DNA from: Candidatus Aenigmatarchaeota archaeon
GTDB lineage: Archaea; Aenigmatarchaeota; Aenigmatarchaeia; QMZP01; JAFGSV01
DNA: 64,000 nucleotides
Assembly (NCBI GenBank): GCA_016934325.1
Contig: JAFGSV010000028.1
Location: forward strand, 1 to 64,000
Direction of reading: 5' to 3'
Numbering within the stretch: position 1 is the first letter of the stretch; each line of letters starts with the position of its first letter. The notes beneath the pieces are model-generated. The model did not search any database and was not told the origin of the DNA. It worked only from the letters and a program-made list of their open reading frames with translations. Shown here piece by piece: positions 1 to 21,600 of this stretch. The translations under genes and the position numbers were made by a program.

Positions 1-3000
1 CCGCAGTCGTCGACCGACGTGCCGTTGAACCTGATGGTGTCGGCCTTGGTGTAGTTGGAGGAGGCGTCGGGGGTGGACATGGACGGGGCAAGGATACCCG
101 TGAGCATGAAAGGTATCGCATCGGTGTAATTGTCTTTATAGCAGTTCTTCCCATAGAATCCGGCTTTCCAGTACTCCTGTCCCAGATAATAGCGCGATTC
201 GCCACACCAATCGTCATGCGTCACGTTCCTCAGCATGAAGCCTGTATCGTTGGTCGACATGAAGCCGGGGGAGTCGAATGACGTGTTATCATTGTAAAAG
301 GATATCCAGATCTTGCCGAAATCCGTCTGGTTTATGACGTGCTCATTGTTGTCCGTATCGTTCACCTGAACCAGAAAAACTGTGAAGCCAGAGCTCCTGT
401 TAATCGTCGCATTCCAGATTGGTGTGATGTTATAAGCCTTCGCATCGTCCCTTTCAACATAGAACGTCAACTCTTCCGTCTCATTCTCCAGTCCAGTTCC
501 CCCCGTGTCTGTCGCGGTGAATTTGTATTTGATGAAGGTATCTGCCTGCGAGCACGAGTAGTTGGTGGTGAAGTTGAACATATCGCCTGGGCTTGACTGC
601 GGGACGATGAGGCTCTCCTCGCCTATGAGGTTCCAGACCGAGTAGGGGGGCTCAGACCAGTTCGCTTGCGTGACGACCAGCCCGCCCTCAAGGTCCCAGA
701 CGGAGACCGTGAAGTTGAAGGTCTCCCCCCAGCCTCCGACCGCCCAATCGTTGATGCTGTCCCAGCCTCCCCCGCTCGCCGTCACATTCGGGTTCTTCAG
801 CTGGGGGTATGTGTTATACGGCTTTATATTCAGGTAAAGGTTCTCAGGCTCGATGAACGTGGTGCCGTACTTCCACTCATATGCCAGCTTAGAGATCGTG
901 ACGTTGGAGTGTTCGCTGTACGTCGCATCCGTGTATGCGTACATGCCGATCTTCCGCTGGTTCGAAGTGAAGCGCCATTCCTCATCGGAATCCATCGAGT
1001 AGTTGGACCATGACTTCCCGGATGAAGGACCAAGGTCATAATGCTGCCAGGTCCTGTAATAATTATCGTAATCGTCCGTGATATTCACCGAACCTTCCCC
1101 GATTGTGGGATCGAAGCCAGTGAAGTTATAGTCAACAAGGAAGTCTATGCTGCTCAGTCTCTCGTATGACTCGGAAGGGTGCTGGAAGTCGTGGCTGACC
1201 GGAGAACAGGAAGGACCGGTGCACGAGTAATACACGTTTTCATCATATCCCGTCGAGTTGATCGTGTCTCTTTCCCCTCTCGCGACCAGGACGTACTGGC
1301 CGTCGCTGCAGTTGAGCGACAGGTTGAATTCTGTTTCAGCGCCCACTGCGAGAGCGGGCAGCTGCCACATCACCACTTCCCCCGCCTCGGTTCCGTCTGT
1401 CCATGTGACGTTGCAGGCATTCGGTATTGACAGGCTTACGTTCCAGTCGTTGGCCGAGGCGGCGGCATCGCCGATATTCTTGGCTGTCAGAGTAACATTG
1501 AAAACATAGTGAGGGTTAGCCGATCTGGTGCCCCATCCGTTCACGACATCGAGATCGAATGCCAGATGGGGCTCTCCGGTGAACTGCATCGTATCCACTT
1601 CGTGATCGCTCAGCTCCAGCCTCTGCCTCGCGCCGAACGTTAGGTTCCAGCGCAAGGTCCCCGTCTGTTCCGTCTGCAGGTTGCTAAGCACCTTGTAGCT
1701 GGCTATCCAGTAGAAGCCGGGATAAAGCTTCTCCGTTCCGTAGTCCCATGTCACCTTTCCCTTCGGAATGTCTGCGGAACCGGGGAAGTTCGGGCCGTAA
1801 GCGATCCAGCCAGAAGAGACCTTTTCCACGAGCTTTATGCTGTCTGCATAAGCGCAGCCCTTGTTGTAGATTATGAGCCTTGATATCAACTCCGTCGAAT
1901 TTGCGACGAGCGTCGGCGTCTCCCTCACGACATCGAGGACCGGTATGCTTTCCCCTTCCTCTATCGTGTAGCCCGATTGCCTCGATTTGGTCAGGCCGTC
2001 GGGGTACGTGTAGTTTGCGCTAGCATTTATCTGCACCGTTTCGCCCGCCGAGCTGCTAGACGTCACGTTGAAAGTGGCCGTGTACGTCCTTGCTTCGGTT
2101 GCGTCAATCACTATGAAGGACGGGGCATAGCTCCATCCGGCCGGCATCTCAAGGGTCACGTTGTACTGGATGCTCTCGTTGAACGGGCTGGCCACGCTGA
2201 CGTTGAATTCCTCAGTAGTCTGGTTGCACATGTATCCGATGCCTGTGATGCTCACGCTGGAATTCCTGTACACGAACCGTTCGCTGCGGTTCGCCTCTGT
2301 CCCTCCGTTCACGAACGCGTGCAGCGAGTAGTGCCCCTCCGGCCAGCCTGCGGTATCGATGTTCGTGAAGTTCTCAATATGAGTTGAATTCTCGTCGATT
2401 GATACGTCCTCTTTCGTGGTCGAGTCGACGACATCGCCGGAGCTGTTCGTGATGTTAAGGGTTATGTTGACCATGTAGCTGTCGTTCATACTGTTTGCTA
2501 TCCTGAAAGTGACATTGAAAAGACCGTCCCCGACCTCCATCCCACCGGTTTCCTGGCCGTTTATCTCCGGCATGATGTCAAGCACGACCAGGTCGAGCTG
2601 GTAGTAAGGCTCAAGGCTCAGGGCATTGACTGATATGTTGCTGGAACCGATGTTTCTTATCCTGACGGTGCAGTAGCCGGATTCGTTTGCGCTTATCTGC
2701 TCAGCCAATATGGGAATGAACCTGTTCTCACCGGTGCCTGACGTGTTCAGCCAGCGGCTGTGCAAGATATCAAGCCAGGCGGTGCCGTTATAGGAGAATA
2801 CCCTAGCGTATGTCTCGTTCCCGTTCCAGTCCACCGTCAGGTTCGCCACCCTGTAAATGCCCGCATCGCATCCGAAGCTGAATGTCTTCTCCCCACCGCC
2901 CTGGATCGTCGATGGCACGGCCTCCAAGAGGCCCGGAGCCGCATGCTTGTAGTTTGTCAGCACGATGTAATCGGTGTCATTGTTCCCGACGGAGTTGTTG

Positions 3001-6000
3001 GCGAAGATCGGGATGTTGAACGTCCCTGGGGTCGTGGCGTTCACTTCCCACTGCACGTATTTGGTGCCGCCAAGGTCGATATTGCCCAGGTACTTCGTTT
3101 TCCCGTCGGTCTGCCATTCATCCGAAACGTTCAGAGTCACGTAGACGCCGCTGGACTGCGCCACCAGGCTTGAAAGGGTCGCGTTGATGGTGAAGTTCAT
3201 GTGCTGGAAGGTCTCCGAGGGGTGAAGGGTCTGGGTTATCGTCGGGCTCGGATTGCAGCCGGCCAGGTCCAAGGTGATGGTGAAGTTCTCGCTCCTGTTG
3301 CCAAGATAGGCGGAATCCCCAGCGACCCATGCAAACCATTTCTGTTCTCCGGGGTTGTAGTTGCAATCCGGGATGAACGTGACATTGGCGTAACCATACT
3401 CATCGGTTGTGGTGGAATTGGCGATCTTATTATAGGCACCGTCATAGCTCAGGTTGAAGTTGACCGTTATGCTTGGGCTCAGGTTGTACCTGTCCGCTAT
3501 GATGTCCCTGACCCTGACGGAAAGGTTCGTCGCCTGGGTCAGGCTGGCAGAGCTTTCATTCCCATCCGCATACTCGATGGAGACGTTGTCCCTTATCAAT
3601 GTGAAACTGTCGAAGCCGGAAGTTGCCTCGGTCGCAAGCTCGAACTTGTAGAACCATGTCCCGACGTCCTGATAAGTGAAGTTATTATACCAGTAGAGCG
3701 TTGAGTCTATGCAGTCGGGGTAAAAGCAGGATATGTCCGTCTGGTTTACACAGGTCGAGCATGGCGTATAGCCGGTCGGCGAAGTCTTAGCCAGGGAGAG
3801 CTGGACATCATAAGGGTCCGTGTCGCCGCTCGAGGCTATGACGGAGAAATTCCAGTTCCTGTACCCCCAGCCCTGATAGGTCGGGACTATGTTCGGGCTT
3901 TGCACCTTGTATACCGGGAAAAGGTAGAACAGGCCGGGGGACACCAGCTTGTAGGTTATGTTCGGATAGTAACCGCTTGATTGAGCGAACATTGTCGTGT
4001 TGTAATAGCCCTTCTGCACCGTTATGTTCGTCGCCCAGTCGCAGGTGTAGGCATTCGCACCTGTCTTATTCACCTGGGCGCACGGGTATGCCCCCGCCGA
4101 GTGGTTGGCGTAGAATATCACGTCGCTGGTGGATACGGTCAGGGGGTCGCTACAGTCGTCCCAAGTCGCCCCGAGGAACGGCACCTTCTGCTCTTGGGTG
4201 TAATTCGTATCGCCGTCGGGCTTGCTGAACTCCAGCTGTATGTCCCCCGTTATGTTGACGATGAGGTAGTAGGAGTCTGCCGTCGAGTTGTCCTTGTAGC
4301 ACGCATCGTCCTCGATGACCGCCTTCCATTCCCTGTATCCGACGCCGTACTTCGGGCTGCATCCGGCCAGGAAGTCATACATGGCTATGCCCGAACCGTT
4401 CGTTGAGTTCACTGCCCCCGAATCCCAAGTGGATATGTCCCTCATGACGTAGAAAGTGACGTTGAGGCCCAGGATCTGGGAACCGTTCAGGTCGGTCGCA
4501 TTGACGAGGAATGTCGTCTGGTTCTTGCCCCTTCTGCTCTCAGTCTTGTTACCGTCAAGATACCTGAGAAGAACCGTGTCCCTCTCGACCGTGAAGGTTT
4601 GTACTGTGGTGTAATTGACGTTCCCGTGGTAATCATCCCCCTTTATCTTGAAGTATTTCGTCCCCTTGTCGCCGCACTCCGGATCCCAGGAGAAGTTGAT
4701 GGTCTTCCACTCCCCGGTCACGTTCACCAAATGGCTTTCTATGACCTCGTCAAAGCTTCCGGTTGGGCTTGAATCTATCCGAAGTGAGAAATTTATGTAA
4801 TACTGGGAGTTTGTCTTGGAGGTGACGTTGAAGCTGAAGTTGGATCCCCACTCCCCCGTAATGGGGTCGACGGTTGAATTCTCAAGATAGATGTACTTGC
4901 CTGGCTGGACAGATACGTTGTAAACTCCGCTCTCGTTGTAGTTGTAGCATGTCTCGGACATGTCGACATACCCTATCCAGTTCTGCTTGCCCTCCTGGAA
5001 GTCGCCGTCGGGGGTGAAGTAGTAAGTCACATGACCCGTGGAGTTCGAGGTCCCCGTACCTACATTCTTATAGTCTCCCGACCCCACCCCCGTCTTGGTC
5101 ACGTTGAATGCCAGGGTCATCGTATCCAGCAGGCTGAATGTACCCATGTCCGTGTCGTTAATCCTCAGGATGAACCTGCCTGGCGAGCTCGGGCTTGCTG
5201 AAGTCTCGTTCCCGAAAATGTAGTGTATGGTCACGTTGTGCTTCTCGATGAAGAAGGTATCGTCGTTGCTCCAGTAGTCCCCGGGGTTCAGGATATCGGT
5301 ATACACCACGTTGCTCTCGTTGTCGAGCGCCTCGAACCTGAACTTCATATACTTATCCGCATACCCTGTACATGAGTAGTTGACGTTGTCCCAGTAGAGC
5401 ATCGTGTAGTTGTCGCTATTGTTGCTGCAGCTGGTGCAGTTCTTGTAGCCTATCAGCTCCCAGGAGCCGCCGAGCACCTGGGTCTTCAGCGTTATGTTCA
5501 CGGTGTCCCCCATGTTGTCCTTCACCTTGAGGGTAAAGTTGTAGTTCTTTCCCCATGGCTGGGACCGGGGTGTCACGTTCGCGTCGTAAAGCTTCGGCTC
5601 CGTGAAGAGGAAGAACGTGTCGTTGGGCGGGAAGATGGTCGTGTCGTTCGACCAGTAATTGGCCGCCTCGGCGTGCATCGAGACGTTGTACCAGCCCTGG
5701 ACGGATTCCTGGGTTGGCTTCCAGTTGCAGTAGTAGACGTTCGCTCCGCTCCTGCTTATGCCGGTGCATGAGACCTTGTAATTGCCCGATGTCAGGTTGT
5801 ACCATACGTTGCTGACGCTCGTCGTTATGGGCTCCCCGCAGTAGTTGTTCACGTAGCCCTGCAGCAGGATAGTGTCCTCGCTGGTGTAGTTCTTGGTCCC
5901 GTCGGGGAACACGATGAAATTCTCCAGGGCGCCGGTGACGTCGAAATCGTAGTATTCCGACTGCGAATCCTGGCACAAGTAGTCGTCATCCTCCGTCGTT

Positions 6001-9000
6001 ATCTCGATGTACCAGTTGTGCGCCCCTACCTCGTATTCCTCGTCGACGCTTGTGGTGTTGGGATCGTTGCAGGTTGCAGTGAAGTTGTACGATACCGTGC
6101 CGTTCCCGTCAGTAGTCAGGACGTGCCCGGAATCCCACGTCGCCCCAGAGCCGGTCCCAACTTTAGATACATAGAGCGTCAGGGTCTGCCCTACGGCGGG
6201 AGCGAAATCGTCGGAATTAAGAGTCACCCACATCCCGCTGTAGATTATCGTGTCGTTGTTGGGAGGAGGGCCTCCCCCGGAATCGAAGTACACGCCCCTC
6301 ACGCTCAGGCTTCTGTTCGCCGAGTATTTCCATGCATCCAGTATGACGGAGTCCGTCAGGTTGAGTTCGAAGTCCGTCGTGGTCACGTTCTCCGCATCGG
6401 AGCCCATGGTGTCGTTTATATGGTAATAGAAGCCGGTGACGTAATCCGTCCCGTTCCATACCCTAACCTCCAGGTCAGGTCGCTTGTTGCTCGCCGCGTA
6501 AGAGCCTGTGGGGTTGTAATAGCTGATCCTGGCCTGGACCAGCATCTGCGTCACGTTGCCATCGAAATCGGAGCCCCCAACCGTGTAGTTGACCCAGATG
6601 GAAGGCCCGTCGTTGTCCAGGTCGGGCCCGTAATACAAGGTTGCCCAGACCCCTGTCCAGTTTATGATGTCGTCCACGCCGCTGACCGTGTCGCCGTAAA
6701 CGAGCCTTATGCTCATGTTCCTGTTGGACGCCGCCTGCCACGCATCCAGGACCGACTGGTCCGTCACGGAAATGGTGAAATTGGTGTCGGTCGTGTTGTC
6801 TGCGTCGGATCCCATCACGTTCTCTACGCCATACAGATACCCCGCGACATATCCTGAGCCGTTCCACAGCCGTATCTCGAGGTCCGGTCTGGTGTTGCCT
6901 GCGTCCCTGGACCCGTTGGGCAGGTAGTAGCTGACCTGCGTCTTGATCCTGATTTCAGACACGTTGGGGAAATCGTAGCTGTCGGTGAAATTGTAATCCA
7001 CCCAGCTGGTGTTGGCCTCCGTGGTCCATACCCTGAATGTGCTGTTCTGGTCCGCGAAGGCGCACTTGTTCTGGTCGTTGCACACGTAGCAGTTCCATTC
7101 GTAATCGCCGTCCGAAGGGAAAACCCTCGCGAAGGTGAACTCGCCATTGATTCCCGAGATGTTCGTGCCGTTGGTGCCCCATCCCGGGACCGCCCCGGTC
7201 CAGTTCCCGTAAAGCGTGGCGTTGACGACGCTGAATATCTCGTCGGTCCCGCTGCAAGTCAGGGTCACGAGCTGCGAATAGACGGACTCGCCGTCGCCGG
7301 GCTCATCGAGGGAAACGATAGGAGGTCCCAGCACCGAGACCTTCTTGGAGTTCGAATCCAAGGTGGAAGTCGAGTTGTAGATCTGGCAACTGACGTAGTA
7401 AATGCCGGACGTGCCGAAGCTGACCGTGCGGTCATACCTCACGCCGTTGCCCACGTCTGTTTCCATGTTGTAGGGGGTAACGTTATTGGGTCCTGATTCG
7501 GGTATGTCGATGAAAGAGGACTCTCCGGTGTAATTGTACCGGAAGGTAAGGTTGACTCCCGTGGGGGCGCCGACCAGCGGCGTGCAGTTCATGTCGAAGC
7601 TCTCCCCCTTGTTTATCTGGATGTCCGTCGTGGGGGCGTCCAGGGTCAGGCCGTCGAGGGTGGGCTTCAGCACCGGTAGGAAGTATGCCCATATCCAGAT
7701 GTCGCCGTAGGATGTGGATTCCACCTTGTACTCGTAGCCGCCGGTCCCGGTGAGCCCGGTCGCCAGTCCTACGTGGGTGCCGCCGCCGATGTCATAATAG
7801 TTAACCGAAGGGTTCCATCCGGTGCTGGAATTCATCCTGAGCGTGACCCCGTAATCGCTGGCGCTGTCCGCTTCGGCGATGAACCCGACGGCCTCGTCGG
7901 GGATCCCCAGGTCCCCCGCATCGTAGGCGGTCCACGTGTCCCCGGAGCCCGGCCTAGAAGGATGGAAAGAGTTCAGCGTGTAATTGAGGTAGAACTCCCC
8001 GGTTGGATTCGCGGGCGTGTAGCCGACCAGGTAGAACCTGACGTCCGTGCTGTCCCTCTGTATCTGGAAAGACCTGCTGGAATCGAGCATCACCGCCCAG
8101 TAGGCGTGCGCGTCGTCCTCCAGTTCCCTGATGCTCCTGTCGTCGCCGCTTCCTACCGGCCTGATCATGTAGTCCTCGTCGTTGGACGTATCAACGTTCT
8201 GGACGTTTATTATGACCCCCGTCGCCCCCGCTGGCACGTAGGAGCTGACGTCGATGACCACCCAGCCCGTGCTGGATCCCGGGCTGACGTCGACGTAGTC
8301 GGTGAAGAAAACCTCGGAATCGAAATAGCCTATAAGGTAGTAGTCCCAGTTGGAGTTTCCCTGGTATATGTCGATCTCCTTGTCATCGTCGACTCCCGTG
8401 ATGAGGATCATGTTGCAGTCGTCTTCGAGGTGGGAGTACGTCGACAGGTCCTGTGTGCTGTCCCCCTTCCTGATCTGTGCCCCGGCCCCGGCCCCGCCCC
8501 CGTCGTCAGAGACCATGACCATGACCCCTGTGGCTGTTAAAGGTATGTAGGAGCTAAGGTCGACATCCTCCGTCCAGCCGGTGCCACCCGGGGTTATGTC
8601 CTGGTATGGAGCGAGGAAATTGCTCACCTGGTTGTGGGCGTATTCGACGTCGTCCCCGAAACGGAACTCCAGGGTGTGCTTTCCCGAGGTCAGGACCCTG
8701 CTGACCTCATTTCCAGTCCCCTCGCAGATGTAATCCCTGACGAAAACGGAGCCGTCTACCCATTCGTAGTCCTTGATCACGTCCCCGCATCTCAGTTCCA
8801 GGAAATCTATGTCGTTGCCGAAACCGGTCCCGTCCACAGCACTGATCGTCAGGTCCGACGTGCCTGTGGTGTTGAAACTGACCGTCCAGTTCCCGTGGAG
8901 GGGCGGGTACGACTGCACGTTCATGACCGTCAGGTCCGCCCCAGGCCCGTGTTCTTCCTCGTATACCGCATCCAGAAGCGAAAAAGACGGCTCGGGCAGG

Positions 9001-12000
9001 AGCGCTGAGAGGAAATCGTTCCGGATCGCCAAGGGATTCTCCGGACCGGCCTCTTCTACACGGTCCCCGTTCTGGCCGCCGCCGAGGCCGAGCATTTCCA
9101 GGAATATTGGGCAGTCGCCGACCTTTGCCTGCTGCTCACCTGGTTCCTGATCCCGGCTGGTCCACGACGCCTTCGGAGCCTTAATCTCGAAGCCGTTGGG
9201 CTCGAGGTTGTCCGACTCAACTGTCATGCCTGAATACACAATGGCGGAAAGGGTCAGCTCGGGGGCGTCCGCGCTCCTGTTCGTCTGCTCCCCGTCGCCG
9301 GCCAAGACCCCGTAGGTGTACGCGTAGCTGGGGTCGCAGACGGATGTCAGCGTTATCTCCCTCGTGCTTTCCCTGTCCATGGCTATGCTCTCGGTGTGAG
9401 TGGCGTAGCCAAACTTGGAGACCGAGAGCGTGAAGGTGTCCGTTCCCTGGGAGAACTGGCGGCTTCCCGAGCTGTCGTATTCGGCGTACACCACCTCCAC
9501 GTGCACGGTCCCGTCAGAAGCGGTGTAGACCGGGAAACCGTAGGCCAGTTGGTCATCCTTGTCCAGCATCGTGAGGGTCGCGTTATCTATGGGGTCGCCC
9601 TTGCTGTCCTTCACCAGCACGTCGAGCGTGTACTTCCTGAAGAGCGTCCCGCCCCCGCCGACATCCCTGTAGTTCCACGTGTCTGACTGGATGTTGACGG
9701 TCGAGCCGTTCAGCGAACCCGCCGAGAAGCCGTAGCCATCCTCTATGTTCAGCGTCTTGCTGACGTCCGAGGCTATCCTGCCATGGACCGTGGAGTTGCC
9801 CAGAATCACGTCGACGTAGGAAGTATAGATGGAGCCCGTGTCCGTGGTGAAGGTGTCGTTCAGGTTCGCCTGTACGTAATCGTATATGTTGCTTAGCGTC
9901 CTGTTCGAGGTCACCCTGATGCTGCCGCCGTACGAGTACACCGACCTAACGGTCTCGCCGTTGTAATCCGAAGTGAAGTTCACGACGCCCGTGGTCCAGT
10001 TCACGGTGTAGTTCGCAGAGGATATGGGAGGGTACTGGTAGTATATGTCCCCCGATCCGCTGCCGTCTGTCTGCAGCTCGTCCTGCAGCATGGCCGTGTA
10101 CTCACTCTGGCACACCGGATAGCCGTTAAGATTGATTGTGCCGGAGCTGACGTCTTCTTCCTCCCCATCGCTGAAGGTAACCTTCGTGGGCGGCGTGTAA
10201 ATTATCCCGGTCTGGCTCTTGGCAGCGGCCTGGCTCGTGATGTTTATATATGGGTTCACCAGCAGTACCTTGTCAACGTCCTTCGGTATCGACATGTCGG
10301 CCACGTCCTGCAAGAACCTGTAGCCGTATTTCTTGTAGTAGAAGGTGTGCGTCGTGTAAGTGTCATGGTTCTCGTCCTGATCAGTGACCGGGACGCTTGA
10401 TGTCCCGACGTTTGCCCTCGTTATGAATCGCAGGTAATCAACCAACTGCTCGAGTATCTTTCCGTTCGAATTCGTGACGTTGTTGAAGGCCGGGTCGCCC
10501 CTGACGTCTATGGCTGTTACGTTGACACTGGTGATGGGGTTGTTGCCCGTGTCCTTCACGTTCGCGGTGAACGAATTCTTAAGGAGAACATACCTGTTGG
10601 TATAGCCACCTGCGCCGCACTGGTCCCACATGTGGTCCGGCGGGTCGGTGCTTATGTTGGAATCCTCCGCTATGAGGGTCGGCCCTCCCATCTTCACATC
10701 GACGCAGTTCTCAAAGCCGTAGTATCCGCTGACCTTTGCATCGGCCTGGCACATCCTTATTCCCGACTGCGCATGATGTATCTGTATGTTCTGGACGGAT
10801 TTCGAGGGGAAGGCCGTCAGCTCCATGCCGTACCTGAGATAGGAGGCGGCGTAGTCGTCAATGTCCGAGTCCTCCGGGACATACATTATCGGGCAGTTCG
10901 CGGTGCAAGTGGTCGGGGGCCCGCAGGCGTTGGGTCCCTCGAACGTGAACCTCCTTATGACGAGCCTCTGTGTGCCCTGCCCCGCACCGCCATTGTGATT
11001 TGCTGAATTTGAGGCGGGGTCTATGTTCTGCTTGTTTCCCGCTGCCCTTATACTGCGGAATGTGGTGTCATATAACAGAATCTGTCCGCCCGGAACCGCG
11101 GTGGTGGCGGGATAATCCATCGCGCATATGGCGGCACTGTCACAGGTCAGGCTTGAGACACTGCCCTCCACCAAGCACCCTTCCTGCGGCATCCCCTCGA
11201 GCAGCTCCCCGAACTGCAGAATCCCCCTTTCGTGGACCAGCCAGTAATAATCCGCCCTGATATGCTTGTTCGTGCACGTCAGATTTGAACTGACGGGGCT
11301 GCCATCGCTTGAAATTATCACGCGTGCATGGAAGTAATAATAATTGCCGCTCACGGTCAGGTAAGTGGCACTGCAGCCGTTAGATCCTCCTTGAACCGCG
11401 GTATATATATTTTCACACGTATAATCTCCGCCCACTACAGATATTATGCCGCCGACGCCTCCCGAACAGGAGATGCCTGAACCTACCTGCTTATTCAGAT
11501 GTATGACATTCGGCTCCGTGTCGTAACCATCATTATAATACACGCTCGAATTGACGGGCTCCGAGTACATCTCCACTGTGTAATCGGCGCTCTCGTTGTT
11601 TACAGCGGGGGGCGCAATGTCCCAGTTGCAGTAGAAGGTCATGTTGGGGTACATGCTGGCATACTGGCTTCCCGTCGAGGGGCACCTGTACCTGTCTCCT
11701 GTTCTGTTATCGGTCATGTTGAACCAGACCCTGACGCTCGCGTTGCTGAGCAGGACGCCGCAGTCGTCCGTCACGTTGCCCCTTATTGTGACGTAAGCTC
11801 CCGGTACAAGGTCGTATCCGCTTCCATGGTCTTGATCATAGAAATCGTTGCTGAGGTCGCCGTAGACCTTCACGTTGTAATCCGATGACATGCTGTTCTT
11901 GTAGTAGGAATCGTCTGGGGAGACGCCCATATTCCATGTATGATTGCCTACGCTGTAACCGCAGTCTGGATTAAGCTCCACATAATACTCAGGCACCGAG

Positions 12001-12611
12001 TAATTGGCTCGGGCCAAGAAGATGTCATGAGACTGTATGGTTATGTTTTCCGTTACGTTGAAAATGACGATGGAGTCGTTCGTGAAGACGTTCCTGTCGG
12101 TGTCGTTCACCTTCATGCTGAGATATCTCATCTGGTTGCCCGACCTGTTCACTGCCGTGTTGTCCCCGCTGGCGTATTCCATCAGCGTATCGTCTTTCTC
12201 CACGACGAAATAGAATATGCCGCTTTCGTTCACTGCGCCGGTGGTGTTGGTCGCATTGAACTTTCCCTGCCATTCGCTTATGTCATATTTGGTGAATGTC
12301 ATGTAAAGGGTCTTGTTCTCCCCTCCAGGAAGCGGTACGTCATAGTCATAGTCGGCCAGTATCCAGTTACCGGTCAGGCCTTTCTTCAGCCAGAGCGTCA
12401 GGTTGACGTTGTCATTGTCGTCTTCGGAGACCTCGACAGTGAAGTTGAACTCCGTGCCCCATCCTTCCCGGTAGACCTCAGGTGGGTAGAGGCCGCCCGC
12501 CATCCAGCCGCTGAGATGCGGGGCGGCGTAGACAAGGTATGAGAAAAACGCCAGGCTGAACAGCACGGCGAGGATGACGAAGATGCCTTTCAGGCCACAG
12601 TTACTCAACAT
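1..12611 (-). CDS. Giant secreted/cell-surface protein with repeated Ig-like/beta-rich modules; partial, 3' end outside window
   Basis: ATG at 12611 gives MLSNCGLKGIFVILAVLFSLAFFSYLVYAAPHLSGWMAGG (signal-peptide-like). Hand translation at many points down to base 3 (...FNGTSVDDC) stays in the same frame. The ORF track lists no ORF in this frame, as expected if it lacks a stop inside the window. Many N-x-S/T sequons. Confidence 0.88.
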   Translation of the reverse strand, partial: MLSNCGLKGIFVILAVLFSLAFFSYLVYAAPHLSGWMAGGLYPPEVYREGWGTEFNFTVEVSEDDNDNVNLTLWLKKGLTGNWILADYDYDVPLPGGENKTLYMTFTKYDISEWQGKFNATNTTGAVNESGIFYFVVEKDDTLMEYASGDNTAVNRSGNQMRYLSMKVNDTDRNVFTNDSIVIFNVTENITIQSHDIFLARANYSVPEYYVELNPDCGYSVGNHTWNMGVSPDDSYYKNSMSSDYNVKVYGDLSNDFYDQDHGSGYDLVPGAYVTIRGNVTDDCGVLLSNASVRVWFNMTDNRTGDRYRCPSTGSQYASMYPNMTFYCNWDIAPPAVNNESADYTVEMYSEPVNSSVYYNDGYDTEPNVIHLNKQVGSGISCSGGVGGIISVVGGDYTCENIYTAVQGGSNGCSATYLTVSGNYYYFHARVIISSDGSPVSSNLTCTNKHIRADYYWLVHERGILQFGELLEGMPQEGCLVEGSVSSLTCDSAAICAMDYPATTAVPGGQILLYDTTFRSIRAAGNKQNIDPASNSANHNGGAGQGTQRLVIRRFTFEGPNACGPPTTCTANCPIMYVPEDSDIDDYAASYLRYGMELTAFPSKSVQNIQIHHAQSGIRMCQADAKVSGYYGFENCVDVKMGGPTLIAEDSNISTDPPDHMWDQCGAGGYTNRYVLLKNSFTANVKDTGNNPITSVNVTAIDVRGDPAFNNVTNSNGKILEQLVDYLRFITRANVGTSSVPVTDQDENHDTYTTHTFYYKKYGYRFLQDVADMSIPKDVDKVLLVNPYINITSQAAAKSQTGIIYTPPTKVTFSDGEEEDVSSGTINLNGYPVCQSEYTAMLQDELQTDGSGSGDIYYQYPPISSANYTVNWTTGVVNFTSDYNGETVRSVYSYGGSIRVTSNRTLSNIYDYVQANLNDTFTTDTGSIYTSYVDVILGNSTVHGRIASDVSKTLNIEDGYGFSAGSLNGSTVNIQSDTWNYRDVGGGGTLFRKYTLDVLVKDSKGDPIDNATLTMLDKDDQLAYGFPVYTASDGTVHVEVVYAEYDSSGSRQFSQGTDTFTLSVSKFGYATHTESIAMDRESTREITLTSVCDPSYAYTYGVLAGDGEQTNRSADAPELTLSAIVYSGMTVESDNLEPNGFEIKAPKASWTSRDQEPGEQQAKVGDCPIFLEMLGLGGGQNGDRVEEAGPENPLAIRNDFLSALLPEPSFSLLDAVYEEEHGPGADLTVMNVQSYPPLHGNWTVSFNTTGTSDLTISAVDGTGFGNDIDFLELRCGDVIKDYEWVDGSVFVRDYICEGTGNEVSRVLTSGKHTLEFRFGDDVEYAHNQVSNFLAPYQDITPGGTGWTEDVDLSSYIPLTATGVMVMVSDDGGGAGAGAQIRKGDSTQDLSTYSHLEDDCNMILITGVDDDKEIDIYQGNSNWDYYLIGYFDSEVFFTDYVDVSPGSSTGWVVIDVSSYVPAGATGVIINVQNVDTSNDEDYMIRPVGSGDDRSIRELEDDAHAYWAVMLDSSRSFQIQRDSTDVRFYLVGYTPANPTGEFYLNYTLNSFHPSRPGSGDTWTAYDAGDLGIPDEAVGFIAEADSASDYGVTLRMNSSTGWNPSVNYYDIGGGTHVGLATGLTGTGGYEYKVESTSYGDIWIWAYFLPVLKPTLDGLTLDAPTTDIQINKGESFDMNCTPLVGAPTGVNLTFRYNYTGESSFIDIPESGPNNVTPYNMETDVGNGVRYDRTVSFGTSGIYYVSCQIYNSTSTLDSNSKKVSVLGPPIVSLDEPGDGESVYSQLVTLTCSGTDEIFSVVNATLYGNWTGAVPGWGTNGTNISGINGEFTFARVFPSDGDYEWNCYVCNDQNKCAFADQNSTFRVWTTEANTSWVDYNFTDSYDFPNVSEIRIKTQVSYYLPNGSRDAGNTRPDLEIRLWNGSGYVAGYLYGVENVMGSDADNTTDTNFTISVTDQSVLDAWQAASNRNMSIRLVYGDTVSGVDDIINWTGVWATLYYGPDLDNDGPSIWVNYTVGGSDFDGNVTQMLVQARISYYNPTGSYAASNKRPDLEVRVWNGTDYVTGFYYHINDTMGSDAENVTTTDFELNLTDSVILDAWKYSANRSLSVRGVYFDSGGGPPPNNDTIIYSGMWVTLNSDDFAPAVGQTLTLYVSKVGTGSGATWDSGHVLTTDGNGTVSYNFTATCNDPNTTSVDEEYEVGAHNWYIEITTEDDDYLCQDSQSEYYDFDVTGALENFIVFPDGTKNYTSEDTILLQGYVNNYCGEPITTSVSNVWYNLTSGNYKVSCTGISRSGANVYYCNWKPTQESVQGWYNVSMHAEAANYWSNDTTIFPPNDTFFLFTEPKLYDANVTPRSQPWGKNYNFTLKVKDNMGDTVNITLKTQVLGGSWELIGYKNCTSCSNNSDNYTMLYWDNVNYSCTGYADKYMKFRFEALDNESNVVYTDILNPGDYWSNDDTFFIEKHNVTIHYIFGNETSASPSSPGRFILRINDTDMGTFSLLDTMTLAFNVTKTGVGSGDYKNVGTGTSNSTGHVTYYFTPDGDFQEGKQNWIGYVDMSETCYNYNESGVYNVSVQPGKYIYLENSTVDPITGEWGSNFSFNVTSKTNSQYYINFSLRIDSSPTGSFDEVIESHLVNVTGEWKTINFSWDPECGDKGTKYFKIKGDDYHGNVNYTTVQTFTVERDTVLLRYLDGNKTESRRGKNQTTFLVNATDLNGSQILGLNVTFYVMRDISTWDSGAVNSTNGSGIAMYDFLAGCSPKYGVGYREWKAVIEDDACYKDNSTADSYYLIVNITGDIQLEFSKPDGDTNYTQEQKVPFLGATWDDCSDPLTVSTSDVIFYANHSAGAYPCAQVNKTGANAYTCDWATNITVQKGYYNTTMFAQSSGYYPNITYKLVSPGLFYLFPVYKVQSPNIVPTYQGWGYRNWNFSVIASSGDTDPYDVQLSLAKTSPTGYTPCSTCVNQTDISCFYPDCIDSTLYWYNNFTYQDVGTWFYKFELATEATSGFDSFTLIRDNVSIEYADGNESSASLTQATNLSVRVRDIIADRYNLSPSITVNFNLSYDGAYNKIANSTTTDEYGYANVTFIPDCNYNPGEQKWFAWVAGDSAYLGNRSENFTITLDLAGCNPSPTITQTLHPSETFQHMNFTINATLSSLVAQSSGVYVTLNVSDEWQTDGKTKYLGNIDLGGTKYVQWEVNATTPGTFNIPIFANNSVGNNDTDYIVLTNYKHAAPGLLEAVPSTIQGGGEKTFSFGCDAGIYRVANLTVDWNGNETYARVFSYNGTAWLDILHSRWLNTSGTGENRFIPILAEQISANESGYCTVRIRNIGSSNISVNALSLEPYYQLDLVVLDIMPEINGQETGGMEVGDGLFNVTFRIANSMNDSYMVNITLNITNSSGDVVDSTTKEDVSIDENSTHIENFTNIDTAGWPEGHYSLHAFVNGGTEANRSERFVYRNSSVSITGIGYMCNQTTEEFNVSVASPFNESIQYNVTLEMPAGWSYAPSFIVIDATEARTYTATFNVTSSSSAGETVQINASANYTYPDGLTKSRQSGYTIEEGESIPVLDVVRETPTLVANSTELISRLIIYNKGCAYADSIKLVEKVSSGWIAYGPNFPGSADIPKGKVTWDYGTEKLYPGFYWIASYKVLSNLQTEQTGTLRWNLTFGARQRLELSDHEVDTMQFTGEPHLAFDLDVVNGWGTRSANPHYVFNVTLTAKNIGDAAASANDWNVSLSIPNACNVTWTDGTEAGEVVMWQLPALAVGAETEFNLSLNCSDGQYVLVARGERDTINSTGYDENVYYSCTGPSCSPVSHDFQHPSESYERLSSIDFLVDYNFTGFDPTIGEGSVNITDDYDNYYRTWQHYDLGPSSGKSWSNYSMDSDEEWRFTSNQRKIGMYAYTDATYSEHSNVTISKLAYEWKYGTTFIEPENLYLNIKPYNTYPQLKNPNVTASGGGWDSINDWAVGGWGETFNFTVSVWDLEGGLVVTQANWSEPPYSVWNLIGEESLIVPQSSPGDMFNFTTNYSCSQADTFIKYKFTATDTGGTGLENETEELTFYVERDDAKAYNITPIWNATINRSSGFTVFLVQVNDTDNNEHVINQTDFGKIWISFYNDNTSFDSPGFMSTNDTGFMLRNVTHDDWCGESRYYLGQEYWKAGFYGKNCYKDNYTDAIPFMLTGILAPSMSTPDASSNYTKADTIRFNGTSVDDC
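6230..7040 (-). repeat. Two tandem ~130-aa protein repeats within the giant ORF
   Basis: Copy 1 '...SYYLPNGSRDAGNTRPDLEIRLWNGSGYVAGYLYGVENVMGSDADNTTDTNFTISVTDQSVLDAWQAASNRNMSIRLVYGD...'; copy 2 '...SYYNPTGSYAASNKRPDLEVRVWNGTDYVTGFYYHINDTMGSDAENVTTTDFELNLTDSVILDAWKYSANRSLSVRGVYFD...'. Confidence 0.8.
7690..8625 (-). repeat. Three diverged tandem ~100-aa protein modules within the giant ORF
   Basis: 'FLAPYQDITPGGTGWTEDVDLSSYIPLTATGVMVMV...YYLIGY', 'VFFTDYVDVSPGSSTGWVVIDVSSYVPAGATGVIINV...FYLVGY', 'FYLNYTLNSFHPSRPGSGDTWTAYDAGDLGIPDEAVGFIAE...WIWAYF'. Confidence 0.7.
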
Positions 12612-14346
12612 AGCCAACCATCCTCGATTCTAGAACTGCTCCCGTTGCGTTTCTGCGCATGTATCTTCCGCCGTTCACGACGAGAAGATCCTTTATCTCC
12701 GCATCCTGGGGAACGTATAGGATTACTTCGCCATCGCCTTTAGCCCTTTGCAGCGTGAACCTTTCGATGAAAATGTGAGAGCCGTCCTCGCAGTAGATGC
12801 TGTTCTCAGCCGTTTCATGAAATACTTTATATGAAGAGCCGTAAAGCTCAAGCGTCCCCCCGGCACCGATCATGAATGCCGAATTCCCGATTAGCTGAAA
12901 GTCATCCGGGACATCGGTTTGTATCAGAGCCCCTCTGGATGTGAATCCTCCTATCGAATGGCCAAAACTGAGATGTCCCTTCCCAAGGACCACTACATGC
13001 CCGTTGAAATTCAACGTTTCGGATTCCGAGTTAAGCCATGTCTCCTTATCCCCATCACCAATCACAAGATTGGCATCCAAGGTGAAATAGTTCCTTATCT
13101 TGCCTACATTGCCCCAACCCATGAGTTGATCGACATAATGGATATCAAAGAAACCGCAAGGGTTCTGATCGGTGCATGTTTTTCCATCGGCGAGGACATG
13201 TATCGTGTCCGTCACGGGGTCATAGGTAATGCCGCTGGGCATCAAATACAGGACTTCCATGTCGAATGTCCTGTTGTCCCTGCTTCGCTCTTCGCTCTCG
13301 GCATAGACCGTGAGTGAATAATTGCCCACGGAGACTGCCTTGACCCTCCAAGCAAGGGCAATCGTCTCGTTCTCATCGATTTCCGGTATCGATTTTATGA
13401 ATTCCTTTTCGCACACCGATTGGCTGCTGCATTGGCTTTCTTGGCTTCCAAAGTCACATTCGTCTTCGGAGCGTGTTTGCGGGCAGGCTTCCTTGCACAA
13501 GTATTCTTCCAGTATTTCAAGCCCGGAGGGAGATTCGAGTCTGACGTCAACGCCGGTTGACGCTCCGAAAAGGGACGTGACATAAACATGCACCTCGAAT
13601 TCCTCCGTTTGGTTTATCACGGAGGGGGCTACGATTTTCTGGATTCTGATTTCCGGTTCCGTTGCGTTCTGTGTGACGTTTTCTTCCGGAACTCCGATGA
13701 TTATTTCGGCTTCCTTCCATGACCGATTCAGGTACTCATCATCGTTACCAAGGAACTCAGCCCTCACGACGTTGGTCCCATTTCCAAACACGGTGTATAT
13801 GACCATTTCGCCATCAGCATCCGTATCTTCGGAGGCCAGAATCTCACCGTTGAGGTACAGATGAATCATCTGTCCGGGTAGAGAAGTGCCATTGTCCAAT
13901 TGCAGGCGCGCAATTGTCACATTGTTCTTGGGATCAACCTCAACATCAAGGAACGTGTTTGCCCAGATTTCTATCGTTTTGGTTTTTTCGATTATCTTTA
14001 CAGATGGGGTACCATCTTGGGTGTTGTTGTCACCCGTCGCGAGAAAATTCCCAGTGAAACTTGCATTCATGGTCGAGTTCAGAGCGGAGTAAGCGACAAC
14101 GGAGCCTGCCGCAAGCAACATTAAGATGACCGAAATCGCCAGCTCTGCCTGTCCTCTGTTATATCTTGATCTCACGGCAAAGAAAATGCTGCACAGGAAT
14201 GACGCTATGATAATTATGGGAATAAAGTGGGTAATCAGGACGGCAAGAACGGCTGTTATTAAGGAAAAAATCACGCTAAAAACGTATACTGTGCTCTGGC
14301 CTTTCTTCGCTTTCCCGGTTTGGGTGTGATTGCTTTCACTGGGCAT
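12601..14346 (-). CDS. Membrane-anchored surface protein: N-terminal TM helices, Ig-like ectodomain, beta-rich C-terminus
   Basis: 581 aa; hydrophobic segments VYVFSVIFSLITAVLAVLITHFIPIIIIASFLCSIFF and AELAISVILMLLAAGSVVAY, then N-glycosylation sequons and beta-rich sequence. Confidence 0.85.
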   Translation of the reverse strand: MPSESNHTQTGKAKKGQSTVYVFSVIFSLITAVLAVLITHFIPIIIIASFLCSIFFAVRSRYNRGQAELAISVILMLLAAGSVVAYSALNSTMNASFTGNFLATGDNNTQDGTPSVKIIEKTKTIEIWANTFLDVEVDPKNNVTIARLQLDNGTSLPGQMIHLYLNGEILASEDTDADGEMVIYTVFGNGTNVVRAEFLGNDDEYLNRSWKEAEIIIGVPEENVTQNATEPEIRIQKIVAPSVINQTEEFEVHVYVTSLFGASTGVDVRLESPSGLEILEEYLCKEACPQTRSEDECDFGSQESQCSSQSVCEKEFIKSIPEIDENETIALAWRVKAVSVGNYSLTVYAESEERSRDNRTFDMEVLYLMPSGITYDPVTDTIHVLADGKTCTDQNPCGFFDIHYVDQLMGWGNVGKIRNYFTLDANLVIGDGDKETWLNSESETLNFNGHVVVLGKGHLSFGHSIGGFTSRGALIQTDVPDDFQLIGNSAFMIGAGGTLELYGSSYKVFHETAENSIYCEDGSHIFIERFTLQRAKGDGEVILYVPQDAEIKDLLVVNGGRYMRRNATGAVLESRMVGYVE

Positions 14347-15514
14347 AGCTCACCCTCACCTTCAATTCGTTCAGACCGAGAGAAGCATCCATATCAGCGA
14401 TGACCGTTATTGCAGAGGTGCAAGTGAATTTCGGTGCTATTTCATCGCAAATGAAATCCATATCCCCTCTCACCAATACCAAGAAATCGGGCAACAGCCA
14501 CTCAATCATTATGCCCTGGACTCCAACTTCCCCCACATTGCCAACGACCGCGAACAATTCGATTTCCTCGCCCCTTGTTATCATGTTCGGTGACAATATG
14601 TCAACAACGATTTCTGGTTCTGCGTGCTCTTGAGTGATGTTTTCTGTTATGTTTTCATCTGTTTCTGTCACGTTTGGTATGGTTATGCGAGTCTCGTTTG
14701 TTATCTGCTCTGTCTCGTTCGGAACCGTGACGTTAGTTTCGTTTGCATCAGGGGTTGTTGCATTCGGAATCGTCAGGTTTGTATCGTTCATGACAGGGAC
14801 ATTCGCATTGGGCGGTGTCAGGTTTGTGTCATTTGAAAAATAAGGAGGAAGTGGGGGAGGCGCAGTGACGTTCGTTTCATCCGATGTTTCATTTATTATC
14901 GGCTCTCTGTCTTCACTGATATCGGGGACGGTGGCGTTTGACCCTGTAAAATTCTGTCTGCTGTATTCTTCTATGGAATCATGGGTGCTGTCCAACTCCT
15001 CTGAGCCGCTGTCAATACCGGGGGTATCGGATTTTCCGTTATCGAATGCATCGCCAGCCACGTCACCTAACGACCCATCAGGAGTCTTATTCAAAGCGGC
15101 AGCCATCCCCGCAAGATTGTTATTGGAATCCGTCATGTTCTGCGCAACAATAACGGTTGCAGGCACAAGAAGAAGAATCATCATAAGCGCAATCAGCTGC
15201 GCCTGTCCCTTCCCGATCTTCCTCGGAACCTCCGCATCCGCCTTCTTCATATCCCCGTTGTAGCTCTCCCTCAGGTAGCACAGCTTTGCTGCGCCGACTT
15301 CCCTCTGGTATATGACCTTAGCTCCGATTAGCTCGTACACGTATTTCGTTATCGTGTGCCTGTGATGCCCGACGATCTCGGCTATGTCCCTCAGGGTCAG
15401 ACCTTCCGGATGATTTCTAAGTGCATCTATGATATCTTCCCTCTGATCCACAGAATTTGATTTACCGTTCAAATGCGCGCACCTGTGCAACAGTTTATAC
15501 ATTAATGTACACAA
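14336..15514 (-). CDS. Winged-HTH / single TM / sequon-rich ectodomain protein (candidate membrane-bound transcription regulator)
   Basis: REDIIDALRNHPEGLTLRDIAEIVGHHRHTITKYVYELIGAKVIYQR (wHTH), QLIALMMILLLVPATVIVAQ (TM), NDTNLT/NETNVT repeats, CARDB-like C-terminus. TTG start at 15514 or ATG at 15502. Confidence 0.82.
   Translation of the reverse strand: MCTLMYKLLHRCAHLNGKSNSVDQREDIIDALRNHPEGLTLRDIAEIVGHHRHTITKYVYELIGAKVIYQREVGAAKLCYLRESYNGDMKKADAEVPRKIGKGQAQLIALMMILLLVPATVIVAQNMTDSNNNLAGMAAALNKTPDGSLGDVAGDAFDNGKSDTPGIDSGSEELDSTHDSIEEYSRQNFTGSNATVPDISEDREPIINETSDETNVTAPPPLPPYFSNDTNLTPPNANVPVMNDTNLTIPNATTPDANETNVTVPNETEQITNETRITIPNVTETDENITENITQEHAEPEIVVDILSPNMITRGEEIELFAVVGNVGEVGVQGIMIEWLLPDFLVLVRGDMDFICDEIAPKFTCTSAITVIADMDASLGLNELKVRVSYAQ
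14630..14850 (-). repeat. Imperfect N-x-T-rich peptide repeat (NDTNLTxPN / NETNVTVPN)
   Basis: NDTNLTPPNANVPVMNDTNLTIPNATTPDANETNVTVPNETEQITNETRITIPNVTETDENITENIT. Confidence 0.8.
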
Positions 15515-16810: not shown

Positions 16811-17082
16811 GTTTCTGGTTGGTTTTCGGACTTGCGGCCCAGGGGTGTTTCTTCCTTAGGTTCTTCATTCAATGGATTGCATCTGAGAAAAGGGGGAGAA
16901 GCGTGATTCCTATACATTTCTGGTATTTGAGCCTGCTTGGTGGCCTGGGATTATTGATTTATTCCATACATATCAGGGACATCGTATTTATCACAGGTCA
17001 GGGTCTTGGGATACTAATATACACCAGGAATCTTATCCTTATACACGGGGAGAAGAATGCTAAAAAGCATGGACTTGGATAG
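16801..17082 (+). CDS. Small membrane protein, LAB_N-like (lipid-A-disaccharide synthase N-terminal domain type)
   Basis: WLVFGLAAQGCFFLRFFIQWIASEKRGRSVIPIHFWYLSLLGGLGLLIYSIHIRDIVFITGQGLGILIYTRNL. Confidence 0.8.
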   Translation: MQLSFWLVFGLAAQGCFFLRFFIQWIASEKRGRSVIPIHFWYLSLLGGLGLLIYSIHIRDIVFITGQGLGILIYTRNLILIHGEKNAKKHGLG

Positions 17083-18631: not shown

Positions 18632-21600
18632 ATGGTAATCAGGCATCTCTTAATTTTAGGTCTACTACTTGCTTTTTTACCCACTGCTGCAGCTTCTGGT
18701 TATCCCAATGTTACCCTAGTTTCACCAGCAAATGGAAATGCGACCACTTTGGATAACATAACCTTTATTTGCAATGCCTCTGACGATGAAAACGTCAACA
18801 GAATATCCTTTTACCATGATATGAATGGTACGTTTGGGTTATACGACACAAAGAGGATAATGGAGCTGGATAAGGATTCTAACACCACACTTCTATGCCG
18901 ATTCGATGATTCATATATATGTGAGGGTGGTGAGGAGGGAACCAATACTTCTACAGAATTGGTGGCCAGCAAGTTCTTTAAGGGTGTTATGATAAATGAT
19001 TCTGATACCCTGATATATCAGACTTCCAATAACATACTGTATAATCAGGGAACCATAGAATTCTGGCTCAAGATTGGCCTTGATTCCTCTTATAACATTG
19101 CACGGCTTTTTTCAGCAGGCAGTGAGTTACAAATATACGCTGATGACGGTGACCTCTGTTTTAAATTTCATGATGGAAGTATTAATGAAATAACTGCATA
19201 TAGCGATATTTCCACGTGGAGCGAGGGAGAATGGCACCACTTAGCTGGTATATGGGATGTATATAATTTGGTTGGCAGCGGTAAAATAATTGACCTGTTT
19301 CTTGACGGATCCAATGATTCTGTTCTATACTCAGGTGATTTCTATTCTTATGGCACTTTCGGGGATTACATGTATGTTGGAAGCGATGAATATGGAAACG
19401 ATCAAGCTAATTCCACTTTTGACGAATTCAGGATATCCGACATACCAAGAACACCAGCCGAGATAAATGCCTCTTATATGAAAGGAGCGGGCAACCACAG
19501 CAAAGAATCCGTAAACTGGACAATTACCAATATTCCTGATGGGACGTATACATGGAATTGTCTGGTTTGGGACAATGAGTCCCTGAAGTCTTGGAACAGT
19601 GAGAACTATACTTTTAGTATCGATACAACTCCTCCGACATTTAACGAGGTGAATCTCTCCCCAAGTTCAGCTGATGATATTGACCCGGGAGTAACGATAA
19701 ATGTCACAGCCAATATAACAGATTTCGGCAATGTGAGTGCTGCGATATTCCAATATAAATATGACGTTGAATGGATGAACGTGACGATGGACAGCATAAG
19801 TGATGATTCATGGAATGCGTCGTTTACCACTATATCTTCTGAAAGGGTATATTATTACAAGATATGGTCAAATGACACCTTTGGGCACTCCAATACGTCT
19901 CAAACCTTCAGCGTGAATGTCAGCTGGGATTACTCATGGAATAGGAACCCTTCTCTTATTGATGCATATGGACTTGTGAATAGCATAAGCGACGTAGGGA
20001 TAATAACCGTGAACAATACAGGAGACGACACTCTCATAATCACCCTAACGGATGACTGGCGGCCATTGCTGAATGTTTACTATAACACCACGGAACAGTT
20101 CGCAATAGCCGGGAAGAGCGTAATAGACATCAACGTCACTGCCGAATATGCCAGTTTGGATAGCGCAAAGAACATGACAATAACGATGTCCGCTGAGCCC
20201 TCCGCCCCTGAAAAAACGGCATCTCCAACTTCATTGAATACCATAGCAACTATGAATTCCTATAGCGGCGGGCCATATCCTCATGTGAACATTGCAATGT
20301 GTCCTGTTTCAGTGACGCAGAGCACAACAGGTGTAAACCTGAGTGCAACTGTTAAAAACATAGGCAACGAAACTGCTGAGGATGTCTGGTTCAACTGGAC
20401 ACTCCCTTATGGATGGGCAAACACCAGCGGAAACGTGAACGTGTACATCGGCAATGTCACTTCCAAGTCAACAAACACAAGCGACCTGGTTGTGAAAGTA
20501 AGTTCATCCGCCCCAAGCGGGATATCGGCTGTGTGCGTAAATGCCAGTGGTAAAGGGAACCTGAGCAGTTCTGACTGTGAATTCGTACAGGTGAGTTGCT
20601 CGAATTCGGATGGTGTCTGTGGGGCGGGTTGCACCTACTTAACAGATGGCAACTGCGAAGCGCCCAGCAATGGCGGAGGTGAAACCACATACATCGGCAT
20701 CGGAGCTGTCATAATCGAAGAGCCCAAATTAGAGATCTCATTGCCGGAAAGGATAGACCTCATAAAAGGCGAGTCTGGTAATCTCAGCATAGAAGTCACG
20801 AATCCCGTGGAAAGAACAAACCTTACAGGGATAACGGTGCAAATAACCGGGTACCCCGCAACCCTGGTGGAAATGATGCCGTCCGCAATCAGCAACATCT
20901 CATTCAACCAGACAAGAATCTTCAGATTGACGATCGGCGTTCCGCCCTACATCGAAGAGAAGGATTACTTCGTGAGCGTGACAGTATTGGCAACGGGAAC
21001 GTACAGTGGTGGCACGAAATATCTTGAGAAATCAGGAAAAATGATTTTCGCCGTTCACGGCGTGGTTGAAAGTGCGACTATAGAGGCTATTGAGAATGCG
21101 GAGCGTTCACTGGAAAGGATGAGGGAATATAATTTCACTTATATTCGACTATTGGATATGCTCGATGACGCAAAGCGGGCTTATGCTGGTCTGAATTTTG
21201 ACTTGGCAAGAGAACTGGCTCAAAGAGTCGTGGAACTGGAAGAGACCGCTTTCAGGATTTTCTCATTGATTGGCCAGTTTGAAAAGGATACGGAAGAGGC
21301 CGAACAGTACGGGATGGATATCGAGGAAGCTAAAAGGATGCGTGAATTGGCAATATCCGCCTTCCAGAGAGGGGACTATGAAAGGGCGGAGGACAGGATT
21401 ACGGCTGCAGTAACGGCTTTCAAGCTGGAGACGAAGATGCTTCTGCCTCTGAAAAAGATGATCATGGAATACTGGCCGCACATGTTGTCTTCCATCATTC
21501 TCTTATCCATACTTGGCTTTTTTGCTAAGAGAAGGTTACAGATCAGGACTGTGGAGAAGAAGCTGAAAAAACTGAGAGATGCCAAACAGTCAGTAATCGA

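What the first reader, a model, noticed from the sequence alone, without database searches (positions are those of the whole stretch)
1..12611. Unterminated giant surface-protein ORF (at least 4,203 codons) missing from the ORF track
The minus-strand frame from ATG 12611 reaches base 3 without a net frameshift and has a signal-peptide-like N-terminus. Hand translation shows repeated Ig-like/beta modules and many N-glycosylation sequons. Motifs such as 'YT.ADTIRF.GTSVDDC', 'YTSEDTILLQGYVNNYCGEP' and 'YTQEQKVPFLGATWDDCSDP' recur several kb apart, suggesting a much-duplicated architecture. The ORF track shows only antisense shadow ORFs here. Proteins this size in archaea are typically adhesins, S-layer-like, or contact/predation factors.
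Basis: partly seen in the sequence, partly recalled or inferred. Interest (0 to 1): 0.75.

Follow-up and report, generated by a model that had tools for sequence, protein, structure and literature searches.

The report
Giant surface protein with inner motor
The window holds the front part of one of the largest archaeal proteins: a very long chain of antibody-like domains outside a tiny archaeon's cell that, on another piece of the same genome, ends in an ATP-driven, DNA-pump-like motor inside the cell, a design described so far mainly in one related group and probably used to grip and exchange material with a host cell.

Summary
The minus-strand frame 12611->3 is open (4,203 codons; chance of no stop ~1e-72; GC3 0.77 vs GC2 0.43), starts with a signal peptide and is cut only by the contig end. 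Its missing end lies on contig C34 of the same genome: a 2,572-aa frame open at that contig's end, finishing in one transmembrane helix, a HerA/FtsK-type ATPase and a helical tail. Both halves align collinearly with a single 11,262-aa frame in a relative, so the protein has at least ~6,775 aa. The repeat is a ~320-aa module of three Ig-like domains. The gene follows a coupled membrane wHTH gene; a coiled-coil gene lies downstream of this ATPase in 66 of 71 DPANN loci. The organism groups with Aenigmatarchaeota. This is a SPEARE-like giant protein, a kind known from Nanohaloarchaea whose C-terminal part was noted in Aenigmarchaeota in 2019. Likely work: host attachment coupled to ATP-driven transfer of DNA or protein; transport is inferred, not shown.

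The parts
3..12611 (-). 5' part of the giant surface-ATPase gene; 4,203 codons, runs off the contig start; continues (after a gap) on contig C34 of the same genome (L053 9055-16773, - strand, 2,572 codons)
12525..12611 (-). signal peptide (residues 1-29, hydrophobic 9-27); only hydrophobic helix in P0001
11487..12479 (-). module 1 (residues 45-375), three Ig/FN3-like beta domains
9150..11450 (-). segment of residues 388-1154 with a weak CarboxypepD_reg match at 9348-9620, found once per genome in seven relatives; reading its first part as a beta-helix is mine and untested
5601..6623 (-). module 2 (residues 1997-2337, partial)
4857..5570 (-). module 3 (residues 2348-2585, partial)
3939..4868 (-). 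module 4 (residues 2582-2891)
2952..3884 (-). module 5 (residues 2910-3220)
747..2951 (-). 735-aa segment between modules (residues 3221-3955), collinear with residues 2258-2991 of the 11,262-aa relative (6.8e-133)
3..746 (-). module 6 (residues 3956-4203, cut by contig end)
12601..14346 (-). gene 2, 581 aa, two N-terminal hydrophobic helices plus ectodomain; overlaps the giant's start by 11 bases; fused to the giant in most relatives, separate in this family
14336..15514 (-). gene 1, 392 aa, winged-HTH (residues 27-73) + one TM (105-123) + Asn/Thr-rich ectodomain; overlaps gene 2 by 11 bases; conserved upstream of giants, fused in G060
18632..22735 (+). divergent neighbour: 1,367-aa LamG + Big_7 + NEW3-like surface protein; similar arrangement in G004; membership in the system is only suggested by synteny

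Best explanation
The window carries the ectodomain half of a SPEARE-like giant envelope protein of a DPANN archaeon (Aenigmatarchaeota or close). One polypeptide of at least ~6,775 aa is secreted by its signal peptide, strings tandem three-Ig-domain modules far outside the cell, crosses the membrane once near its C-terminus and places a HerA/FtsK-type P-loop ATPase plus helical tail in the cytoplasm. Most likely mechanism: the modules reach and bind a partner cell; six chains assemble through the ATPase, as HerA proteins do, into a ring at the membrane; ATP hydrolysis drives transfer of a polymer (DNA most likely, judged by the ATPase's kin; protein possible) at the contact site. The coiled-coil gene downstream encodes its cytoplasmic partner or adaptor, and the upstream membrane wHTH protein, translated in step with it, may report contact to transcription. 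SHOWN: open frame, module fold, topology pattern, ATPase family and intact motifs, gene order and its conservation. INFERRED: joining of the two contigs (strong), hexamer, host binding, cargo and direction, roles of the partner genes.
For: Open coding frame. C34 fragment of the same genome with TM and ATPase, the genome's only strong match, oriented to join C9. Both halves collinear with a single 11,262-aa frame; a second genome has an 11,249-aa frame. Single hydrophobic helix followed by KKKKSK, so ATPase inside. Walker A and Walker B kept across 58 sequences. AF2 pLDDT 89; Foldseek best HerA hexameric DNA translocase 4d2i (5.4e-14), then HerA complexes and coupling protein TcpA (3.2e-10); profile hits HerA, T4SS-DNA_transf, CedD. 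Module AF2 pLDDT 88; Foldseek to giant adhesin SiiE, 1.5-MDa ice-binding adhesin, phage Hoc. Coiled-coil gene downstream in 66 of 71 loci. Overlapping membrane gene upstream in eight genomes. Published precedent PMC6642349, PMC10266531.
Against: The join of C9 and C34 is not covered by sequence: no overlap between contig ends, and the middle is absent. I know of no experiment showing transport by any member of this family. The ATPase lacks the N-terminal domain that marks VirB4, and it only resembles HerA/FtsK translocases (TM-score ~0.45). No pore, relaxase or other secretion part was found at the locus, and I did not search for them systematically. TM and signal-peptide calls rest on hydropathy only.
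Confidence: 0.6

Rival explanations
1. Contact adhesin whose ATPase does not move cargo but serves the protein itself: assembling, exporting, tensioning or retracting the giant chain, or signalling that contact was made.
For: The bulk is Ig/FN3-like modules with structural kin among giant adhesins; no cargo, pore or relaxase gene seen at the locus; the upstream wHTH membrane protein suggests signalling.
Against: The ATPase belongs to the HerA/FtsK superfamily of nucleic-acid pumps and its motifs are kept in 58 sequences from several phyla, while the ectodomains vary widely in length (complete frames from 551 aa to over 11,000 aa).
Confidence: 0.27
2. Two different giant genes: C9 and C34 carry ends of separate paralogues, so the window's protein need not have an ATPase.
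For: No overlapping sequence between contig ends; many relatives have two or more ATPase genes; the missing central modules were not found on any contig.
Against: G000 has one strong ATPase match only and one full gene-1 match; both contigs break inside such a gene in the matching orientation; P0001 3221-3955 and C34 1-1900 match one frame in order; several relatives' contigs also break inside this gene.
Confidence: 0.08
3. S-layer or cell-wall protein without special contact role.
For: Sequons enriched three-fold, acidic, beta-rich repeats; a PMT-type and a GT2 glycosyltransferase lie nearby.
Against: A TM helix plus cytoplasmic ATPase is not known to me for S-layer proteins; patchy distribution, 60 of 160 genomes of the phylum.
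Confidence: 0.05

Closest known systems
SPEARE / giant membrane-anchored extracellular proteins of Nanohaloarchaeota (Ca. Nanohaloarchaeum antarcticus 5,998 aa, Hamm et al. 2019 PMC6642349; SVXNc_0300 9,409 aa and BNXNv_0298 8,880 aa, PMC10266531)
   Same: Thousands of extracytoplasmic residues of Ig-like/adhesion domains, one TM near the C-terminus, conserved cytoplasmic P-loop ATPase (VirB4/TraG-like in PMC10266531), coiled-coil tip. Hamm et al. already noted similar C-terminal regions in Aenigmarchaeota, Woesearchaeota, Micrarchaeota and Altiarchaeales.
   Different: No LamG, serine-protease or toxin-like domain detected in the known parts here or in the 11,262-aa relative; ectodomain built of a ~320-aa module series; downstream gene is a coiled-coil protein, not a second VirB4 ATPase; a coupled wHTH membrane gene stands upstream.
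12,127-aa protein of DPANN MAG KA27 (lineage EX4484-52, PMC8470020)
   Same: Similar size class, TM helices at both ends as reported; KA27 holds a member of this ATPase family (L125).
   Different: The 12,127-aa protein itself was not examined here; the KA27 ATPase found is in a 1,393-aa frame.
HerA/FtsK superfamily translocases: HerA, CedB/CedD (Ced DNA import, PMC11868833), VirB4/VirD4/TcpA
   Same: ATPase fold and Walker motifs; membrane helix before the ATPase as in TcpA/VirD4; HerA is the best structural match.
   Different: None that I know of has a giant ectodomain; scores are far below the NCBIfam cut-offs (CedD 34.9 vs 600 bits).

Membership tests
SPEARE giant proteins (Hamm 2019; PMC10266531) | Very long protein with most of its length extracytoplasmic | tested here: met
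   4,203 + 2,572 aa with a signal peptide and no TM before residue 2175 of the C34 part
SPEARE giant proteins (Hamm 2019; PMC10266531) | Single TM near the C-terminus followed by a conserved cytoplasmic domain | tested here: met
   On C34; its union with the window's half rests on collinearity with single frames in relatives
SPEARE giant proteins (Hamm 2019; PMC10266531) | VirB4/TraG-like (HerA/FtsK superfamily) ATPase and coiled-coil tip | tested here: met
   Pfam DUF87, HerA_C, T4SS-DNA_transf; Walker motifs kept; AF2 helices 404-469 after the ATPase
SPEARE giant proteins (Hamm 2019; PMC10266531) | At least one laminin-G domain in the extracytoplasmic part (Hamm 2019) | tested here: not met
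   None in P0001, C34 or the 11,262-aa G047 relative; a LamG protein is a separate gene at 18632-22735; the unsequenced middle remains open
SPEARE giant proteins (Hamm 2019; PMC10266531) | Second VirB4/TraG ATPase gene immediately downstream (PMC10266531) | tested here: not met
   Downstream gene is a 674-aa coiled-coil protein without an ATPase
SPEARE giant proteins (Hamm 2019; PMC10266531) | Direct homology of the cytoplasmic region to a nanohaloarchaeal member | tested here: met
   Ca. Nanohalarchaeota QJJ-7 locus L112: 48% identity over residues 6-470, coiled-coil gene downstream; the named SPEARE accessions themselves were not compared
Ced DNA-import ATPases (CedB/CedD) | NCBIfam CedD/CedB model at cut-off | tested here: not met
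   CedD 34.9 bits against a cut-off of 600
VirB4 | VirB4 N-terminal domain (PF03135) | tested here: not met
   Not among Pfam hits of the ATPase or the C34 frame
HerA/FtsK hexameric translocases | Hexamer formation and DNA translocation | not testable with these tools
   Needs protein

The most novel reading that the evidence does not exclude
A DPANN-wide, conjugation-like machine in which adhesin, membrane anchor and translocation motor are one polypeptide, with a dedicated coiled-coil partner gene and a co-translated membrane wHTH contact sensor, used to import host DNA (nucleotides or genes) into cells with tiny genomes.
Probability: 0.2. Interest if true: 0.88.

Novelty: new variant of a known kind. 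Interest (0 to 1): 0.52.

Why it matters
How DPANN archaea hold on to and exchange material with their hosts is open. A giant ectodomain physically fused to a DNA-pump-like ATPase gives a concrete candidate, and the gene order shown here (membrane wHTH gene, giant, coiled-coil partner) extends it from a few Nanohaloarchaea to a system with defined parts across several DPANN phyla: 60 of 160 genomes of this phylum and 321 stretches in one genome collection carry the ATPase. The conserved partner gene, without a Pfam family, is a small and probably soluble handle for biochemistry.

Tried and rejected
A scan of genome contigs with the N-terminal 1,237 aa found nothing; the ATPase alignment found 321 relatives. 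Pfam, NCBIfam and PDB sequence searches of P0001 alone gave only weak hits: CarboxypepD_reg and Big_1 below cut-off, and catechol-dioxygenase hits that I take for an Ig-like stretch. I looked for overlap between the C34 end and the C9 start: none. I looked for a third contig carrying the missing modules: only weak domain-level hits on C27 and C4. A 686-aa ATPase gene of the same genome (C4) was checked as a possible VirB4 partner; it is HerA-like by Pfam/NCBIfam, without PF03135. The short hairpin of the coiled-coil partner was not found in the LamG neighbour.

Full report
OBSERVATION. The minus-strand frame from ATG 12611 is open to base 3 (4,203 codons). The window is bases 1-64000 of contig C9 of a 1.24-Mb, 35-contig, 79%-complete genome, so the frame is cut by the contig end, not by a gene end. 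It is truly coding: GC by codon position 0.48/0.43/0.77 and a chance of about 6e-73 for no stop at this composition. It begins with a signal-peptide-like stretch, its only hydrophobic helix, and has 179 N-x-S/T sequons against a shuffled mean of 59. The ORF track lacks it only because frames that run off the source are not listed by default.

REPEATS. Self-comparison gives several families of diverged repeats. An HMM grown from residues 45-375 finds six copies in the window's frame and 24 matches, most of them head to tail at ~320-aa spacing, in an 11,262-aa frame of a relative, G047. Copies share no detectable DNA similarity. AlphaFold2 on 47 copies gives an all-beta model (pLDDT 88.1); I read it as three Ig/FN3-like domains, and Foldseek matches multi-Ig proteins, among them giant adhesin SiiE, a 1.5-MDa ice-binding adhesin and phage Hoc. 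TM-scores are low (0.2-0.4), so this shows fold class, not kinship.

THE OTHER HALF. Full C-terminal ends of relatives share a transmembrane helix followed by a P-loop ATPase. Searching the window's own genome with that ATPase found one strong match, on contig C34, 2.0e-174. There a 2,572-aa frame on the minus strand is open at the very end of the contig, with one hydrophobic helix at 2175-2193 followed by a lysine-rich stretch. The two contig ends share no sequence. The case for one gene is collinearity: residues 3221-3955 of the window's frame match 2258-2991 of the G047 frame (6.8e-133), and C34 residues 50-1900 match 8761-10583 of the same frame. A second genome, G114, has an 11,249-aa frame with the ATPase. 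The lower bound here is 4,203 + 2,572 aa; judged by G047 some 5,500 aa could be missing, but copy number may differ.

THE MOTOR. Pfam: DUF87 (HerA central), HerA_C and T4SS-DNA_transf above cut-off for the G059 copy; DUF87 and HerA_C for the window genome's own copy. NCBIfam: CedD, HerA, TraC, CedB, all far below cut-off. PDB profile search: HerA-type proteins only. AF2 model pLDDT 89.4; Foldseek best 4d2i, the hexameric HerA DNA translocase (5.4e-14), further HerA complexes and the coupling protein TcpA. The Walker A glycines and lysine and the Walker B acidic pair are kept in all 58 aligned sequences. So the enzyme is very likely active and belongs to a superfamily that pumps nucleic acids; hexamer and cargo are inferred.

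GENE ORDER. Upstream, overlapping by 11 bases each, are gene 2 (581 aa, two hydrophobic helices) and gene 1 (392 aa, winged helix-turn-helix, one TM, ectodomain). A gene-1 counterpart ends just inside the next gene's start in G047, G059, G026, G017, G016, G034 and G004; the helix-turn-helix part is evident in the window, G047, G059 and G016, and an N-terminal HTH-like stretch is fused to the giant in G060. Gene 2 is fused to the giant except in this family (G000, G004), where the giant starts with its own signal peptide. Downstream of the ATPase lie a 674-aa coiled-coil protein and a 2,093-aa surface protein. The coiled-coil protein, with no Pfam family, is found downstream of the ATPase in 66 of 71 loci with enough sequence, across several DPANN phyla; the iterated profile is coiled-coil rich, but hits concentrate on the first or second gene after the ATPase among all frames within 10 kb. 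A 26-residue hairpin recurs three times in it and once at the cytoplasmic end of the 2,093-aa protein.

DISTRIBUTION. The genome-contig scan returned 321 relatives; the 80 kept are nearly all from DPANN archaea: Aenigmatarchaeota first, also Woese-, Pace-, Micr-, Nanohal-, Parv- and Altiarchaeota, Jingweiarchaeum, Haiyanarchaeum. The window genome's ATPase groups with two Aenigmatarchaeota sequences (support 100, 80% identity). In the window's phylum 60 of 160 genomes, 17 of 40 good ones, carry it.

WHAT IS KNOWN. Hamm et al. 2019 (PMC6642349) named SPEARE proteins in Nanohaloarchaeota and noted similar intracellular regions in Woese-, Aenigm-, Micr- and Altiarchaea. PMC10266531 re-read that region as a VirB4/TraG-like ATPase and proposed a secretion straw. 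PMC8470020 reports a 12,127-aa case. The present protein has the same plan but lacks the LamG domain that Hamm et al. found in all of theirs, tested also in the 11,262-aa relative, and its downstream neighbour is not a second ATPase. I therefore call it SPEARE-like: it probably works the same way, while strict membership fails on one stated feature.

VERDICT. Observation confirmed. Identity as a giant surface protein fused to a HerA/FtsK ATPase: about 0.9. Contact-dependent transfer as its job: about 0.6. The additions over the literature I could read are the joined architecture in this lineage, the conserved coiled-coil partner, the coupled membrane wHTH gene and the fission/fusion of the N-terminal genes.

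Noticed in passing
window 16127-16810 and 17057-18505 (+): GT2 glycosyltransferase and PMT_2-type dolichyl-phosphate-mannose mannosyltransferase next to the giant's operon; could glycosylate it.
   Followed up: no
window 18632-22735 (+); L034 1335-5519 (-): LamG + NEW3 surface protein with a coiled-coil-like C-terminus, divergent from the giant operon both here and in G004.
   Followed up: partly
window 22781-23347, 26120-26701, 31823-32497: Two KaiC/DUF7504/DUF835-like ATPases, the first beside a dCache-HAMP histidine kinase (23474-25717), and a third KaiC-like frame recognised by eye only.
   Followed up: no
L025 18022-18804 (-), G060 giant N-terminal region: Intein-splicing-like insertion (Pfam Intein_splicing, 0.001, below cut-off) inside a giant surface protein's ectodomain.
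   Followed up: partly
L061 7345-13977 (-), L062 4674-11306 (+): Complete shorter paralogues (2,210 aa), one with a beta-propeller match, TM region and the same ATPase: a compact model for study.
   Followed up: partly
G056:C3:174931-175092, G086:C2:184982-185158: wHTH matches inside open frames of 9,160 and 4,686 aa in relatives without the strong ATPase match: possibly other giant proteins with a fused HTH.
   Followed up: no
L053 6996-9020 (674 aa) and 710-6991 (2,093 aa): A 26-residue SHOCT-like hairpin (xLxxLExxYxxGxISxxxYxExKxxN) three times in the coiled-coil partner and once at the cytoplasmic end of the next surface protein.
   Followed up: partly
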